Assembly: GCA_021325095.1 (NCBI GenBank)
Contig: JAJPHV010000081.1
Location: 1-64,000, forward strand
Origin: Chloroflexota bacterium
Lineage (GTDB): Bacteria; Chloroflexota; Anaerolineae; Aggregatilineales; UBA2796
DNA: 64,000 bases
Reading direction: 5' to 3'
The position numbers and the translations under genes are program-made. Of the stretch, positions 38,473-57,300 are shown piece after piece; position 1 is the first letter of the stretch, and every line of letters begins with the position of its first letter. The notes under the pieces were generated by a model that worked only from the letters and a program-made list of their open reading frames with translations, was not told the DNA's origin and ran no database searches.

Positions 38473-38510
38473 ACGCACTGGCCCGGAAAGGACTTTCCGG
38501 GCCAGTGCGT
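38473..38510 (-). terminator. Intrinsic terminator of clpC
   Basis: A perfect 18 bp inverted repeat (ACGCACTGGCCCGGAAAG and its complement) around two bases, followed on the minus strand by TCTTTTCTC. It lies 20 bp beyond the clpC stop. The rest of 38320-38529 shows nothing further. Confidence 0.85.
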
Positions 38511-50774: not shown

Positions 50775-52403
50775 TCAGTTGGGCTTTTGATAGCGCGTGT
50801 CCAGGTTGCCCAGAATCAACAAGCCGCCGATTAGACCAAGCATCGCACCAAGATGCAAGTAGATATTATTAACGTATAGTTTGTCGAACAGGCTGTGTAC
50901 CGCCAGATGTGTCCACACGCCGAGCAGCCCCAGGGCCAGCCCACGCCCGAACCCCGATTGTTGTCTTAAGGTGCGCACCGTCAGCCAGAAGATAGTGATC
51001 CAGGCCGCGATGTAGGCGCTCAGGCCGACGATCCCGGTTTCGGCCAGCAGGTTCAGGTAGTAGTTATGGGCATGTCCGAGCGCCATCGGCCAGTTCATCA
51101 GCGCATAGCGGGGGTAGGCGACCTCGTAGTTGCCGAAGCCCACACCCAGCCAAGGCGAGTCGTTCGCCATCGAAAGGGCGGCCTGCCAGTGCGCAAAACG
51201 TTCCAGCACCGCGTAGTTGGCGTCGCTGATGACCTGTCCGCGCACGTCCGCAAACCCCGACAAATCCTGGGTAAAGTCGCTGAAGCGGGCCGCCAGCGAC
51301 GCAGGCAGCACCCCCGCCGCCGCGCCCGCCGCGCCGCCGAACAGGCCGATTGCCACCAGCATGACGCCGATCCAGCGCCGCCGAGGGCCGAACAGCACGA
51401 GCACGAGCACCGCCGCGCCGAAGCCGATCCACGCCCCCCGGCTCCACGAGATCAGCAGCCCGATCCCGATGATGGCCGCCCCGCCAGCGTACAATGCCGC
51501 GCCTATCAGCGCGCCTCGAACCGACGTTCGCTGGCGGTAAGCCGTCCACGCCTCGGCTGCCGTGCCCAGAGCCGCACCAAGCGCCAGAGGGAACGTCAGG
51601 CCCATAAACGCGCCGAACGGGTTGGGCTGGCCGAAAGTGCCAAAGGCCCGGAAATAGCGGTAGTCGAGAATCCACAGGTGCGCCGCGCCCGATCCACCGA
51701 AGAACTGGTACAGCCCGATCACTCCCTGAATCACCGCCGAAAGGATCAGCGCCCCGACTATCCAGTGCAGGTTGTTGACCCCACCTCCTGATCCCTTCTC
51801 CGCAAGCAGCGAGGAGAAACCACGAAGCGAAGACTCCCCTCTCCACGCTGGCGGAGAGGGGTCGGGGGTGAGGCGGTGTGTGAAACCAGCGCGAAGCGGG
51901 GTAGGGGGTAAGGCGCACCCGACTATCAACGATACCACTACCCCGATCATTGCCAGCATCTCGATCCATTTCAGCAGTTCCGTCAGGGCGCTGCTCGGCG
52001 AGAGTGCCCCCCACAGGCTGAACGACGCGGCCAGCACAAACAGCCCCACCGGGACATACAGCGGCGTCCAGGGCAGGTCAAGCCTGCGCCGTGCCGCAAT
52101 GGAACGCGCCAGCCAGATTCCGATCAGCGTCAGGAAGGCCAGTTGGCCGATGTCGAGCGGCCAATCGATCCGGCTTTCGGTCTCGATCAGGGCTTTAAGC
52201 GGCGCAACGGTCAGCGTCACGACCAGCGCCACCCGCACATCGATCAGGCTCAGTACGCCGAGCAGCCCGAGCAGCAGCGCCAGCGCCGACGCGCCAGGTG
52301 GCAGCAGCCCGATCAATACGCCTGCCAGCAGCCCGAGCAGCGCCCAGGCCACTGTCTGGCCCCGCCAGCGGGTGTCTTGTCCGTAACGAGCAATCGCTGT
52401 CAA
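50775..52403 (-). CDS. O-antigen ligase/polymerase-like membrane protein with repeat insertion
   Basis: A 542-residue protein with about twelve transmembrane helices, of the O-antigen ligase (Wzy/WaaL-like) family. The long loop [13 protein letters not shown] followed by [14 protein letters not shown], then [18 protein letters not shown] and [18 protein letters not shown], is the family signature with the catalytic-region His. The start is TTG at 52403, overlapping the upstream stop by 4 bp with GAGGG 7 nt before it. A stretch of about 40 codons (near 51780-51910) encodes dispersed-repeat sequence ([15 protein letters not shown]), inserted in frame between helices. Confidence 0.85.
51790..51872. 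repeat. Dispersed palindromic repeat, copy F, inside a gene
   Basis: CTCCCCTCTCCACGCTGGCGG and AGAGGGGTCGGGGGTGAGG at 51834-51872, preceded by a degenerate related arm at 51790-51820 (CCCTTCTCCGCAAGCAGCG). Both lie within the O-antigen ligase-like coding frame without breaking it. Confidence 0.8.
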
Positions 52404-53347
52404 ACGCGGCCCTCGAAGTAGCGGATGGTGCGCTGCAAGCCCTCGTGCAGCGCCACGCGCGGCTCCCAACCAAGTAGCTTGCGGGCGCGCGTGATGTCGG
52501 GCTGGCGCGTCTGGGGATCGCCCTCAATGCGATCCTGTTTTTTGAAGATAATACCTGCCGGGTTGTCGGTCAGCATATTAACCACCTTAGCAAATTCCAG
52601 GATCGACATCTCATTGGGATTACCGATATTGACCGGGTTAGCTGCATCTTCCGAGGGTGGCAGCATCAACAGACGGAACAGCCCCTCGATCAGGTCGGCA
52701 ACGTAGCAGAACGAGCGGGTTTGCGATCCGTCGCCATAGACGGTCAGCGGTTCCCGCCGTAGTGCCTGCCCGATGAAGTTCGGCACGACCCGGCCATCGT
52801 CCAGGCGCATCCGCTCGCCAAAGGTGTTGAAGATACGCACGATCCGCGTATCGACTTTGTGCGCCCGGTGGTAGGCCATCGTCAGGGCTTCGGCAAAGCG
52901 CTTGGCCTCGTCGTAAACGCCGCGCGGCCCGATGGTCACGACGTTGCCGGGATAATCCTCACGCTGAGGGTGCACGAGCGGATCGCCGTAAATCTCCGAA
53001 GTCGAGGCCAGCAGGAAACGAGCATTTTTATGCTTGGCGACGCCAAGCGCGTTGTGCGTGCCGAGCGCGCCCACCTTCAAGGTCTGGATCGGGTACTTGA
53101 GGTAGTCAATCGGGCTGGCCGGCGATGCAAAATGCAGCACGGCGTCGATTGGCCCATCCAGGAAGATGTAGTGCGTTACATCGTGCCGGATGAATCGGAA
53201 ATCCGGACGGCCCGCCAGGTGAGCAATGTTGTCGGTGTTGCCCGTGATCAGGTTGTCCATTGCGATCACGGAATGACCTTCGGCCAGAAATCGGTCTGCC
53301 AGATGGGAACCCAGGAAACCTGCGCCCCCGGTAATCAGAATTCGCAC
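52400..53347 (-). CDS. UDP-glucuronic acid decarboxylase/NAD-dependent epimerase
   Basis: A 315-residue extended short-chain dehydrogenase that probably makes UDP-xylose from UDP-glucuronate. [21 protein letters not shown] is the NAD motif. The catalytic pair Y145 and K149 ([13 protein letters not shown]) and the [21 protein letters not shown] stretch are typical of [39 protein letters not shown] supports a UDP-sugar substrate. The start is GTG at 53347 with GAGG 7 nt upstream. It leads the glycan operon with the ligase-like and GtrA genes. Confidence 0.9.
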
Positions 53348-53529: not shown

Positions 53530-54927
53530 TCATTCTGGCTTAGAGAGCATGAGAATGTTCTCGCGGAGCCAGTATTTGTGAGATGTGCTTGGTTTAAGCT
53601 GCCAAAGGATTATTTCGGGTCTGACGTAGCCAATCCTTAGCCCTATTTCTTGGAGGATTGCTGCTGTCTGGACGTGAACCATTTTGAAGGCGTGGCTGTC
53701 GGACACCAGGAGCGCAATTTTTCCGCCTGGGCGCAAAACTGCGAAGCATTCTTGTAGTGCTAAGTGCATTCCGCCGAAGTATTCCCAAATGAGTTTGGTG
53801 TAGAGCTTTTCAAATCCACTAGTTGCTCCGTCTTCGGTGAGGCGTTCTTGAATGAGGTTTGTGATTGTACGGATGCTTTCAAGGTTGATGACGGTTTCTT
53901 TGTCCTTATCCTCTTTGAAAATGTTCGTTGTTGAGGCCCGTATCATTCTCCGTTTTATGATCCGAAATTCGTTGTGTGTTGTCGCGTAGCCGCGAAAGGT
54001 AAGTTCTAAGCGCGTGTGCTTTGTGTATTCATGGTCGCCGGGGTAGGGCGGCGAGGTCATCATGAGTGATACTGAATTGTGGTCAAAGTATTTGGAAAGA
54101 TGGCGTGCGTCGCCGAGCTTGACGGTGGACGGTGTGGCTCGCTGCGCTTCGCTTATGTGTCTCAGGTCTTTAATCATACGGCTAAGTTTTTCGATGAAGA
54201 TGTCCAGAACTGGCACGTCGTCACGTGGCTTCACTATGCCAAAACCAGGACCGTACCGCACGTTTGATATAGGGACGATGATTGATGTGAGGGCCAGGTT
54301 GAAGAGTTCCTGGATCGGGCCAGCAGGGATTATTGTCTTGATGGCATCGTCTATCATTAGGGCGCGGGCGAGTGGCTTGTCTGAGATGTATTTTTGCAGG
54401 AGCATTTCTGGCCGACGTGGTGTGACGTAAAGCTGATAGTCCTGCTTGCCATTGCTGCCTTGTGGGGCAAAGAGGGAAAGTTGTGCGGGTTGCGTGTCTT
54501 GTCCCCAGGTGTAGCTGTGAAAGGTTGCCTCAACCTGTCGTAATACCTCATCTCGGTAGTGGATTAGGGCTTTCGTATCTAGGTTCCAATTGAGTTTGGC
54601 TCTGGCCGCATCCACCAGGAAGTCGTTTGCATCTATGCCCTCCGATGGGATTTGATGCTGCTTACATGTTACAAGAGTAGTGCCCGTACCCATGAACGGG
54701 TCAAGCACTAAATCGGTCTGCCGTAGATTTTCTCTGCGTATCATGTATTCGGGAAACTCAGGTGAGTATCCCAAGACAAAGTTGTACCAGTTGTGGAAGG
54801 GGAAGTTGTTTGCAGAAGACGCTTTGCCATTGTGCGTGTCAATGATGGGTGGGGTAGTGTCATGTGTATGAAGTTCGTCGCATACGTCGCAGGGTCTTCC
54901 CGTCGGCGGGTGGAACGAGAACGGCAT
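53530..54927 (-). CDS. DNA methyltransferase of a restriction-modification system
   Basis: A 465-residue site-specific methylase. The AdoMet site is DPFMGTGTT (76-84) and the catalytic motif is TSPPYPGD (291-298); TSPPY suggests N4-cytosine methylation, though N6-adenine is possible. About 210 residues between the two probably hold target recognition, and LRPGGKIALLVSD near 412 closes the fold. The gene and the next are clearly more AT-rich than their surroundings, which suggests transfer. It protects DNA from the endonuclease encoded upstream on the same strand. Confidence 0.88.
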   Translation of the reverse strand: MPFSFHPPTGRPCDVCDELHTHDTTPPIIDTHNGKASSANNFPFHNWYNFVLGYSPEFPEYMIRRENLRQTDLVLDPFMGTGTTLVTCKQHQIPSEGIDANDFLVDAARAKLNWNLDTKALIHYRDEVLRQVEATFHSYTWGQDTQPAQLSLFAPQGSNGKQDYQLYVTPRRPEMLLQKYISDKPLARALMIDDAIKTIIPAGPIQELFNLALTSIIVPISNVRYGPGFGIVKPRDDVPVLDIFIEKLSRMIKDLRHISEAQRATPSTVKLGDARHLSKYFDHNSVSLMMTSPPYPGDHEYTKHTRLELTFRGYATTHNEFRIIKRRMIRASTTNIFKEDKDKETVINLESIRTITNLIQERLTEDGATSGFEKLYTKLIWEYFGGMHLALQECFAVLRPGGKIALLVSDSHAFKMVHVQTAAILQEIGLRIGYVRPEIILWQLKPSTSHKYWLRENILMLSKPE

Positions 54928-54982
54928 TTACTGTCCATGTCCTTTATTGTTGCCACTTTTATCGGACATTTTACAGTAAAAA

Positions 54983-55849
54983 TTACAGATTGCCACTTTT
55001 CCCTCCTGCCCTTTTGGATTTCTGCCAGGATTGAATAGGTGGCTCTATTTTGACTTTGAGAGAGCGGGTAATAACGAGGCTGCCCTCCGGCGTTTCTTCA
55101 AAGACTGCGATGAACATGCCCTCTGGTATCATTTGGACAGCAAGCGGTATGATTTTTGTGTCTGAAATCTTATTTTTGATCGTCTGATATGCGCCTTCAA
55201 TCTGTGCCCGATTGACACTATCGCCTGTGCTGAGGGCTTTGGCTTCTACAGGATAGAGGATACCCGGTTCTTCGGCGTCGCAAAAGTACAGACCATCAAC
55301 TTCACCGGGTTGCCATTTTTTGGGGTGTTGCACTCTTTTTATCGTTCCTGGCGCGTCATTGAGAGCTTGTGAGAGTATGTCGCAGTAGTCCATTACAGAA
55401 AGCAGCGCGCCTTCGTCGTTGCCGAGGTAAGGTTTCACGCTCTCTGGGACAGTGTTCAGAACAGTAATTACATCTTCATCAGGTATTTCCTGCCAAATTA
55501 TCCACGGGTCTCTGGCCTTTAGCTCAATCCGCACCAGTCTGCCTGCGTATCCTTCGCGGACTTTACGCTCTGGCATTCTGTCAAGGTCATAGCCTTGTTG
55601 TGAGATTGTGTCAGGGACGCGCTGCTCGATCGTGTTAGCCTTTCTCAGGAGATCAATAACGAAGTTGGAAATTGATGCTTGACTGTCTCTTTTTATTTGT
55701 AGTGCAGCCATAGCTTGGCGGATGTTTTCATATGTGAAGGGAATTTCGTCCGGTGGTACTGGTGAATTTTCCACTGCTTTATTGAAGATATATTCGAGGA
55801 TTGGGTGTTTGTATGACCTGTAGCGCTTCCCATTGTGAATGTAGACCAC
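54983..55849 (-). CDS. Type II restriction endonuclease of the PD-(D/E)XK type
   Basis: A 288-residue protein. I do not recognise a named enzyme, but the catalytic pattern is clear: E183-V-D185 (PGEVDGLYF) followed 17 residues later by E202-A-K204 (YPVEAKALS) and Q216. The N-terminal 60 residues hold predicted helices (HPILEYIFNKAVENSP). The start is GTG at 55849, 6 bp after the controller stop; an ATG nearby is out of frame. The gene sits between controller and methylase, as expected for a C-R-M system. Confidence 0.8.
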   Translation of the reverse strand: MVYIHNGKRYRSYKHPILEYIFNKAVENSPVPPDEIPFTYENIRQAMAALQIKRDSQASISNFVIDLLRKANTIEQRVPDTISQQGYDLDRMPERKVREGYAGRLVRIELKARDPWIIWQEIPDEDVITVLNTVPESVKPYLGNDEGALLSVMDYCDILSQALNDAPGTIKRVQHPKKWQPGEVDGLYFCDAEEPGILYPVEAKALSTGDSVNRAQIEGAYQTIKNKISDTKIIPLAVQMIPEGMFIAVFEETPEGSLVITRSLKVKIEPPIQSWQKSKRAGGKSGNL

Positions 55850-55855
55850 GTGCGT

Positions 55856-56086
55856 TCATTCCGATTTGAGTAGGTCGTCCACGCTGATTTCAAGGCATCG
55901 AGCTAGCTTGTGTAGGTTGAGCAGCGATATGTTTCGTCTACCTGTCTCGATTTCGCTGTAATAAGACCGGCTGAAACCTGCTCTAGCTGCCATCTCTTCT
56001 TGCGTGAGGTGTCGTGCTATCCGAAGTTGCCGTAAACGTTCGCCAAATCGCCTTAAAACTTCGGTGTCATTGCTTGTTCTACGCAT
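55856..56086 (-). CDS. XRE family controller (C) protein
   Basis: A 76-residue Xre/Cro-type DNA-binding protein. The helix-turn-helix is LTQEEMAARAGFSRSYYSEIETGRRN, followed by ISLLNLHKLARCLEISVDDLL, the size and form of R-M controller proteins. ATG 56086 is taken as the start because a promoter-like TTGCGA-16-CATACT on the minus strand would begin the RNA almost at that base, giving a leaderless message. GTG at 56110 is the alternative. It lies first in the C-R-M operon. Confidence 0.87.
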   Translation of the reverse strand: MRRTSNDTEVLRRFGERLRQLRIARHLTQEEMAARAGFSRSYYSEIETGRRNISLLNLHKLARCLEISVDDLLKSE

Positions 56087-56093
56087 GGGGCGT

Positions 56094-56139
56094 AGTATGC
56101 AGACTGCCACTTAAATCGCAACCCGATTTAAGTGGCAGT
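56094..56139 (-). promoter_or_regulatory. Controller promoter and 37 bp palindromic operator
   Basis: ACTGCCACTTAAATCG (56103-56118) and CGATTTAAGTGGCAGT (56124-56139) form a perfect 16 bp inverted repeat with a 5 bp centre. A -35-like TTGCGA (56121-56116) lies within it and a -10-like CATACT at 56099-56094, spacing 16. Binding here would activate or repress the controller and endonuclease, as in C-box systems. Confidence 0.75.
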
Positions 56140-56384: not shown

Positions 56385-57242
56385 TCACCCTAAAGGATAG
56401 CCCAATTCCTGTATCTTCTGAGTCAGGTTGCGCTTGGCGAGTGGGATCAGCCCGACGGGAAGATGTTCCATGACGACGTAGCCATCGGGCTTGATCTCAT
56501 GCAGGCGGCGAAAAATGGTCGCAAAGTCCATCATCCCTGTGCCGATAACCGTCTCGGATATGTGGACGACGAACCGATCTTCGAGGTAGTAATCCTTCAC
56601 GTGAACCGTAGCGATGTACTCCCCCACCATGTCAAACATTTCGTTAATCATCGGGGCCGGGTTGAAGGCCGTTGGCAGGTCGCCCACAAAGTTGCAGGGG
56701 TCAAGGTTGATTTTGAGCCGCTTCGACCCGGTGCGCTCGATCACGCGCCGGATACTGTGCGCTGAGTTGAGCGTCGTCGTCACGTGCGTTTCCAACACAA
56801 TCGTGATGCCGTAGTCCTCGGCGGTTTGCAGGATTTCGTTCAGGCTCCTGACCAGCCGATCCTCGGTTTCGGGTTTGTAGTTGTCCGGGTGCGGCCACCA
56901 GTCGCCGTTCGGGTTCAGGCTGGTCGGACGCACGCCGGATTCTGTCACGCCCATCCGTGCGGCCAGTTTCACGATGTCGCGTGCGCCTTCGACCCCGGCC
57001 CGGCGCACATTCTCGTCCGGCGACACGATACACGGGTATGGCCCCCATAACTGCAAAAACGGCATATTCTGATCGGCAAAGACAGACTTGACTCTTTCCG
57101 CCGTCTGGTCGGAGATAGTGCTGGCGGGCACGGTCAGGTGCGCGCCGACACCGTGAAAACCGAGTTCGGCAGCCCAGCGAATCTTGTTATAGTTTACGTC
57201 GCTCAGGTCGCTCATGATGAGACCGAGGAGGCCGATTTTCAT
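56385..57242 (-). CDS. Sugar phosphate isomerase/epimerase family protein
   Basis: A 285-residue TIM-barrel protein of the xylose isomerase-like group. MKIGLLGLIMSD begins the barrel; IVLETHVTTTLNSAHSIRRVIERTGSKRLKINLDPCNFVGDL holds the metal-binding Glu and Asp, and ATVHVKDYYLED and VMEHLP the later ligands. The start at 57242 has GGAG 6 nt upstream. It is divergent from a KduD-like dehydrogenase, suggesting joint use in sugar-acid breakdown. Confidence 0.85.
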   Translation of the reverse strand: MKIGLLGLIMSDLSDVNYNKIRWAAELGFHGVGAHLTVPASTISDQTAERVKSVFADQNMPFLQLWGPYPCIVSPDENVRRAGVEGARDIVKLAARMGVTESGVRPTSLNPNGDWWPHPDNYKPETEDRLVRSLNEILQTAEDYGITIVLETHVTTTLNSAHSIRRVIERTGSKRLKINLDPCNFVGDLPTAFNPAPMINEMFDMVGEYIATVHVKDYYLEDRFVVHISETVIGTGMMDFATIFRRLHEIKPDGYVVMEHLPVGLIPLAKRNLTQKIQELGYPLG

Positions 57243-57300
57243 GCTTGCTCCATGTGTATTCCGGTATGGGTACGGCCCCATTGAGAGGAGCCGTGCCGAA

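What the first reader, a model, noticed from the sequence alone, without database searches (positions are those of the whole stretch)
53530..56139. Complete AT-rich C-R-M restriction-modification island with a 37 bp palindromic operator
Controller, PD-(D/E)XK endonuclease and TSPPY methylase lie head to tail in the order C-R-M. A perfect 16+5+16 palindrome covers the -35 region of the controller promoter, and the -10 (CATACT) places transcription start almost on the controller ATG, implying a leaderless message. The endonuclease matches no named enzyme I know. Composition differs from the flanking genes, suggesting recent transfer.
Basis: partly seen in the sequence, partly recalled or inferred. 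Interest (0 to 1): 0.72.

Follow-up and report, generated by a model that had tools for sequence, protein, structure and literature searches.

The report
Self-timed restriction-modification system, divergent nuclease
This is a bacterial DNA-cutting and DNA-protecting gene set with its own built-in regulator, of a well-known kind; the cutting enzyme belongs to a divergent and uncharacterised branch of a restriction-enzyme family, and the regulator's DNA site appears again in front of the protecting gene.

Summary
On the minus strand lie an intact controller (C, 55856-56086), endonuclease (R, 54983-55849) and methylase (M, 53530-54927), in the order C-R-M. A perfect 16+5+16 palindrome (56103-56139) overlaps the -35 of the C promoter, and CATACT lies 7 nt before the C ATG. 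The same operator design, spacing and near-leaderless start recur in a related C-R-M system (L007) and in a C-plus-truncated-R remnant in the same genome (contig C35). The layout is the classical C-box of AhdI/Esp1396I-type controllers, so the mechanism is known: C autoregulates C-R transcription and so delays R. I add three points. (1) R has a PD-(D/E)XK core and belongs to a divergent branch of a Type II restriction-enzyme family (PADLOC PDLC03404), adjacent or fused to a methylase in relatives; R itself matches no library model. (2) M has the motif order of alpha-class N4-cytosine methylases such as M.DraR1. (3) An operator arm (54951-54964, 12/14 identical) lies in the putative M promoter, and L007 has its own version of the half-site there, predicting that C also represses M, as in Esp1396I. 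New member of a known kind; target and activity untested.

The parts
56103..56139 (-). C-protein operator: perfect 16+5+16 palindrome (two mirror-image dimer sites around spacer GGTTG on the gene strand), outer TG...CA at 56105/56137
   Evidence: same design in L007 1939-1975 and on contig C35 (L011)
56094..56121 (-). Putative C-R promoter: -35 TTGCGA (56121-56116), 16-nt spacer, -10 CATACT (56099-56094); both hexamers 4/6 to consensus, as expected of an activator-dependent promoter
   Evidence: read from sequence; positions conserved relative to the operator in L007 and C35
55856..56086 (-). C gene: 76-aa HTH controller, ATG 7 nt after the -10 (near-leaderless)
   Evidence: PDB C.BclI 2.4e-15, C.AhdI 1.2e-13; PADLOC Control_protein 7e-19
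54983..55849 (-). R gene: 288-aa PD-(D/E)XK endonuclease, GTG start 6 nt after the C stop; putative catalytic residues E146, D185, E202, K204
54951..54964 (-). Putative M operator (O_M): CGATAAAAGTGGCA, 12/14 identical to an operator arm, over the expected M transcription start
54989..55000 (-). Second outer half-site (AAAAGTGGCAAT), 40 bp upstream in the same orientation, over the putative M -35 GTGGCA (54996-54991)
54968..54996 (-). Putative M promoter: -35 GTGGCA, 17-nt spacer, -10 TAAAAT
   Evidence: consensus scan, 9/12; not proof of function
53530..54927 (-). M gene: 465-aa methylase, DPFMGTGTT near residue 76 then TSPPY at 291-295 (alpha-class order, N4-cytosine type)
   Evidence: PF01555 4.7e-11; PADLOC MTase_II 2.4e-29; 26% identity over 86% to the D. 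radiodurans pCP1 methylase

Best explanation
A complete, intact, controller-regulated Type II restriction-modification system. C dimers bind the two mirror-image halves of the palindrome upstream of C: one dimer activates the weak C-R promoter, and full occupancy by two dimers covers the -35 and represses it. C and R are made from one near-leaderless message, so R appears late and at a capped level. M has its own promoter with a copy of the operator arm over its start, so it is made at once in a new host and then repressed by C. Shown here: the genes, the motifs, the operator conserved in three loci, and the operator-arm copy before M. Inferred: DNA binding, the order of activation and repression, cleavage, methylation, and that R and M share a target.
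For: C is closest to solved controllers C.BclI and C.AhdI. The operator layout fits the published C-box (about 35 bp, two quasi-palindromes, central GT, outer TG...CA; PMC3115060). The operator, GGTTG spacer, -10 position and ATG spacing recur in L007 (14/16 arm symmetry) and, with one base less before the ATG, in C35 (13/16). The pattern occurs once in the 6.6-Mb genome and nowhere else in 298 class genomes. R homologues lie in M-R pairs or M-R fusions. R profile links: hhalign E 5.8e-10; a main-branch-only profile scores R at 22.0 bits against at most 4.6 in 1000 shuffles. AlphaFold model pLDDT 80; top structural matches are mostly PD-(D/E)XK nucleases, Z 5-6.7. M-promoter copy: 3 sites at 2 or fewer mismatches in 64 kb against 0.23 expected. 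The exact outer half-site lies in the R-M gap both here (TGCCACT; 13/2000 random intervals) and in L007 in L007's own version (TGTTACT; 17/2000).
Against: No expression, binding, cleavage or methylation data exist. R itself hits no family model, and structural Z values are below 8. The L007 M-gap matches only the outer half-site (the full arm is not significant, 120/2000). L007's R frame is broken by a one-base shift. Promoter hexamers are consensus guesses in an organism whose promoters are unstudied.
Confidence: 0.88

Rival explanations
1. C regulates only the C-R promoter (AhdI-like); the TGCCACT copies before M are chance or relics and M is unregulated.
For: The L007 gap has no full-arm match, only the outer half-site. 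The two window copies are direct repeats, not an inverted pair.
Against: The window copy is a whole arm at 12/14. The half-site changes in step with the C operator between the two systems.
Confidence: 0.3
2. The island is a decaying remnant: C and M still work but R is dead, or the set is silent.
For: L007 has a frameshifted R, and contig C35 of the same genome carries a C plus truncated R, so decay occurs in this group.
Against: In the window all three frames are open and the catalytic residues are present.
Confidence: 0.12
3. The middle gene is not the partner nuclease but an unrelated protein, and C-M is an orphan methylase cassette.
For: R has no direct hit in Pfam, NCBIfam, PADLOC or PDB sequences.
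Against: Adjacency to or fusion with a methylase in relatives, the homology to PDLC03404 members, and the conserved D...(E/Q)xK core and fold.
Confidence: 0.04

Closest known systems
Esp1396I restriction-modification system (PMC3758141)
   Same: C binds operators before C-R (O_L, O_R) and before M (O_M); about 35-bp C-box with outer TG contacts
   Different: Here the O_L and O_R sequences are exact mirror images, whereas Esp1396I sites are subtly different with affinities of 1-230 nM; genes here are C-R-M in one direction, while Esp1396I is convergent (PMC5333194); relatedness of R and M to the Esp1396I enzymes was not tested
AhdI system (PMC5333194)
   Same: Near-leaderless C message, C-R co-transcribed from a C-box promoter, separate M promoter; C.AhdI is the second-best PDB match
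   Different: AhdI is convergent; a C site at its M promoter was not seen in the passages read
PADLOC REase_II family PDLC03404 (paired with m5C methylases on small Klebsiella/Salmonella plasmids and proviral contigs)
   Same: R is homologous along most of its length, with the same E-x-D and (E/Q)-A-K core
   Different: Window R, L007 and L009 form a divergent branch (about 20-24% identity) not recognised by the model; their partner is an N4-cytosine-type M; window and L007 add a C gene and put R before M
M.DraR1 of Deinococcus radiodurans (DR_C0020; PMC6712171)
   Same: Alpha-class order of FxGxG then SPPY, N4-cytosine type; 26% identity
   Different: Identity too low to transfer the CCGCGG target; R.DraR1 is a GIY-YIG enzyme (PMC10855626)

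Membership tests
C-protein-controlled Type II R-M system | Small HTH controller of the C.AhdI/C.BclI family | tested here: met
   PDB C.BclI 2.4e-15, C.AhdI 1.2e-13; PADLOC Control_protein 7e-19
C-protein-controlled Type II R-M system | About 35-bp double C-box with outer TG...CA and central GT, overlapping the C promoter | tested here: met
   56103-56139; conserved in L007 and C35; definition from PMC3115060
C-protein-controlled Type II R-M system | C directly upstream of R in the same direction, co-transcribable | tested here: met
   6-nt gap here, 8-bp overlap in L007
C-protein-controlled Type II R-M system | R and M act on one target sequence | not testable with these tools
   needs methylome and cleavage data
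PD-(D/E)XK nuclease superfamily | Core of helix, three strands, helix, strand with D...(D/E/Q)xK | tested here: met
   E146, D185, E202, K204 aligned in 18 sequences; model order H146-155, E186-190, E197-204, H214-227, E236-241; best structural matches mostly of this superfamily, Z 5-6.7, hence weak taken alone
PADLOC PDLC03404 REase_II family | Direct match to the family model | tested here: not met
   No hit for window R or L009 even at E 10, though 9 of 11 members of the alignment match (best 4.1e-117); homologous branch, not filed as a member
Alpha-class N4-cytosine methyltransferase | FxGxG near the N-terminus, SPPY near the C-terminus | tested here: met
   DPFMGTGTT near 76, TSPPY 291-295; definition from PMC6712171
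Alpha-class N4-cytosine methyltransferase | Product is N4-methylcytosine | not testable with these tools
   no methylation data
Esp1396I-type three-operator regulation | C site in the M promoter | tested here: inconclusive
   12/14 arm copy plus a second half-site here; only the half-site in L007; binding untested

The most novel reading that the evidence does not exclude
A controller switch with exactly mirror-image O_L and O_R (no built-in affinity difference between activating and repressing sites) plus an operator-arm copy repressing M. Direction would be set only by the GGTTG spacer and polymerase position, a natural test of whether unequal sites are needed for the delay. It is coupled to a nuclease of uncharacterised specificity from a divergent restriction-enzyme branch.
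Probability: 0.35. Interest if true: 0.45.

Novelty: new member of a known kind. Interest (0 to 1): 0.3.

Why it matters
It adds to the uncultured Anaerolineae group a controller-run system whose C operator and M-promoter half-site can be compared between two homologous systems that read different sequences. It ties a restriction-enzyme branch with no library match to a described family whose relatives pair either with 5-methylcytosine or with N4-cytosine-type methylases, or are fused to the methylase. The perfect symmetry of the operator gives a simple test of how controller timing depends on site affinity. The target sequence may be new, but this is not established.

Tried and rejected
Direct family searches with R in Pfam, NCBIfam, PADLOC, PHROGs and PDB sequences gave nothing usable; weak Pfam hits (Glyco_hydro_38, Pathogen_betaC1) are below cut-offs and rejected. 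R alone found no phage, plasmid or viral-contig relative; the family alignment did in viral contigs, and a main-branch relative (L044) did in plasmids. The search for the empty insertion site failed: in the relatives sampled, the genes next to the flanking-gene homologues differ, so insertion age is unknown. Transferring the CCGCGG target of M.DraR1 was rejected at 26% identity. The palindrome as a terminator was rejected: no T run follows it on the gene strand. Foldseek alone gave no match at E <= 0.001; only the second-look aligner put PD-(D/E)XK nucleases on top, at middling Z.

Full report
What is there. On the minus strand between a UDP-sugar epimerase-like gene (52400-53347) and a sugar-phosphate isomerase-like gene (56385-57281; both names are my reading of the sequence, no family search was run on them) lie C (55856-56086, 76 aa), R (54983-55849, 288 aa, GTG) and M (53530-54927, 465 aa), all open and head to tail. 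The island has 48.7% GC against a window mean of 59.4% (sd 2.9) and is the lowest 2.6-kb stretch of the window; GC3 is 46-57% in the island and 74-75% in the two neighbours. The related system L007 is also poorer in GC than its flanks (45.5% against 54%), which fits repeated transfer. I found no empty site, so age is unknown.

The operator. ACTGCCACTTAAATCG GGTTG CGATTTAAGTGGCAGT (gene strand) at 56139-56103 is an exact 16+5+16 palindrome. Only one other perfect inverted repeat of that size with a short loop occurs in the window. It fits the published C-box: about 35 bp, two quasi-palindromic operators around a central GT, outer TG...CA (PMC3115060). The predicted -35 TTGCGA sits in the spacer and inner arm and the -10 CATACT follows 16 nt later. 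Both are 4/6 to consensus, as expected for an activator-dependent promoter. ATG follows the -10 by 7 nt, so the message should have essentially no leader, as reported for AhdI (PMC5333194).

Conservation of the design. A scan of public genome contigs with R found one relative, an Anaerolineae MAG contig with a full C-R-M set (L007; R 66%, M 65% identical). Its operator AATGTTACTCGGATTA GGTTG TGATCGGAGTAACATT differs in sequence but keeps the 16+5+16 geometry (14/16 symmetric), the GGTTG spacer, CATACT at the same distance and 7 nt to ATG. L007's R reading frame is broken by a one-base shift, in the assembly at least. The window's own genome has a second copy on contig C35: an intact C (52/76 identical), an operator with the same core and spacer (13/16), GATACT at the same distance with 6 nt to ATG, and an R cut after about 55 residues. 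The operator pattern occurs once in the genome and nowhere else in 298 class genomes (C35's copy lacks the outer CA and so escapes that pattern). C itself is closest to C.BclI and C.AhdI.

The methylase promoter. TGCCACTTTTATCG at 54951-54964 is 12/14 identical to an arm. At two or fewer mismatches the whole 64 kb holds only this and the two palindrome arms (0.23 expected). A second half-site lies 40 bp away at 54989-55000 in the same orientation. They cover the expected start and the -35 of a predicted M promoter. L007's R-M gap holds its own half-site, TGTTACT, not the window's version. An exact own-type half-site appears in 13/2000 (window) and 17/2000 (L007) random intervals of that length. 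The full-arm match in L007 is not significant (120/2000). This parallel change is the best evidence that C also acts on M, as C.Esp1396I does through O_M (PMC3758141) and as C.Kpn2I represses its M (PMC6237814). Binding is not shown.

The endonuclease. R has no direct match in Pfam, NCBIfam, PADLOC, PHROGs or PDB sequences. A profile search of the class found relatives in 36 of 396 genomes including this one. In the loci read with enough flank, an M lies directly upstream of R or is fused to it (M-R single chains in L037-L039), or is convergent with it (L009); no C-like gene was found in ten neighbourhoods of 8-9 kb. Members of this main branch match PADLOC Type II restriction-enzyme model PDLC03404 (4.1e-117; 9 of 11 tested). 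The window branch is divergent but homologous: a profile built without it scores R at 22.0 bits (E 3.5e-4 for 100,000 sequences; best of 1000 shuffles 4.6 bits), and hhalign of the two branches gives E 5.8e-10. D145-E146, E183-x-D185 and (E/Q)202-A-K204 align across 18 sequences. An AlphaFold model (mean pLDDT 80) has the PD-(D/E)XK element order, and its best structural matches are mostly nucleases of that superfamily at Z 5-6.7. That is modest alone but consistent with the motifs. The same R family pairs with 5-methylcytosine methylases on small Klebsiella plasmids and in proviral contigs.

The methylase. M has PF01555 and PADLOC MTase_II hits. Its motif order (DPFMGTGTT, then TSPPY) is that of alpha-class N4-cytosine enzymes such as M.DraR1 (PMC6712171), to which a tblastn match on plasmid pCP1 gives 26% identity (that the pCP1 gene is DR_C0020 is inferred from its place on the small plasmid). 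The target cannot be transferred at that identity.

Verdict. It is an ordinary C-controlled Type II system with three additions: the conserved operator design in three loci, the putative O_M, and the placement of R in a divergent branch of a described family. I file it as a new member of a known kind.

Noticed in passing
L011 1459-2000 (contig C35 of the same genome, 57.8-58.3 kb): Second, intact C gene with its own near-palindromic operator next to an R cut after about 55 residues and no M: an orphan controller whose operator differs little from the window's (TGTCACTTAAATCG against TGCCACTTAAATCG), so cross-talk is possible. The assembly has 6% estimated contamination.
   Followed up: partly
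L037, L038, L039: Single open frames of 723-761 aa that join the methylase and the endonuclease (M-R fusions) in other genomes of the class.
   Followed up: partly
L007 2227-3095: R of the closest relative is split by a one-base frameshift while C and M are intact.
   Followed up: partly
L110, L111, L085-L106: The same endonuclease family is paired with a 5-methylcytosine methylase (with a Vsr-type repair gene and an HTH gene in L111) on small plasmids and proviral contigs, whereas Anaerolineae pair it with an N4-cytosine-type enzyme: partner exchange within one nuclease family.
   Followed up: partly
L097 1805-2638: A second, divergent endonuclease-like gene of the same family lies about 2.4 kb upstream of a normal M-R pair's endonuclease.
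   Followed up: no
window 38473-38510: Perfect 18+2+18 GC-rich hairpin (ACGCACTGGCCCGGAAAG/CTTTCCGGGCCAGTGCGT) without a T run after it.
   Followed up: no
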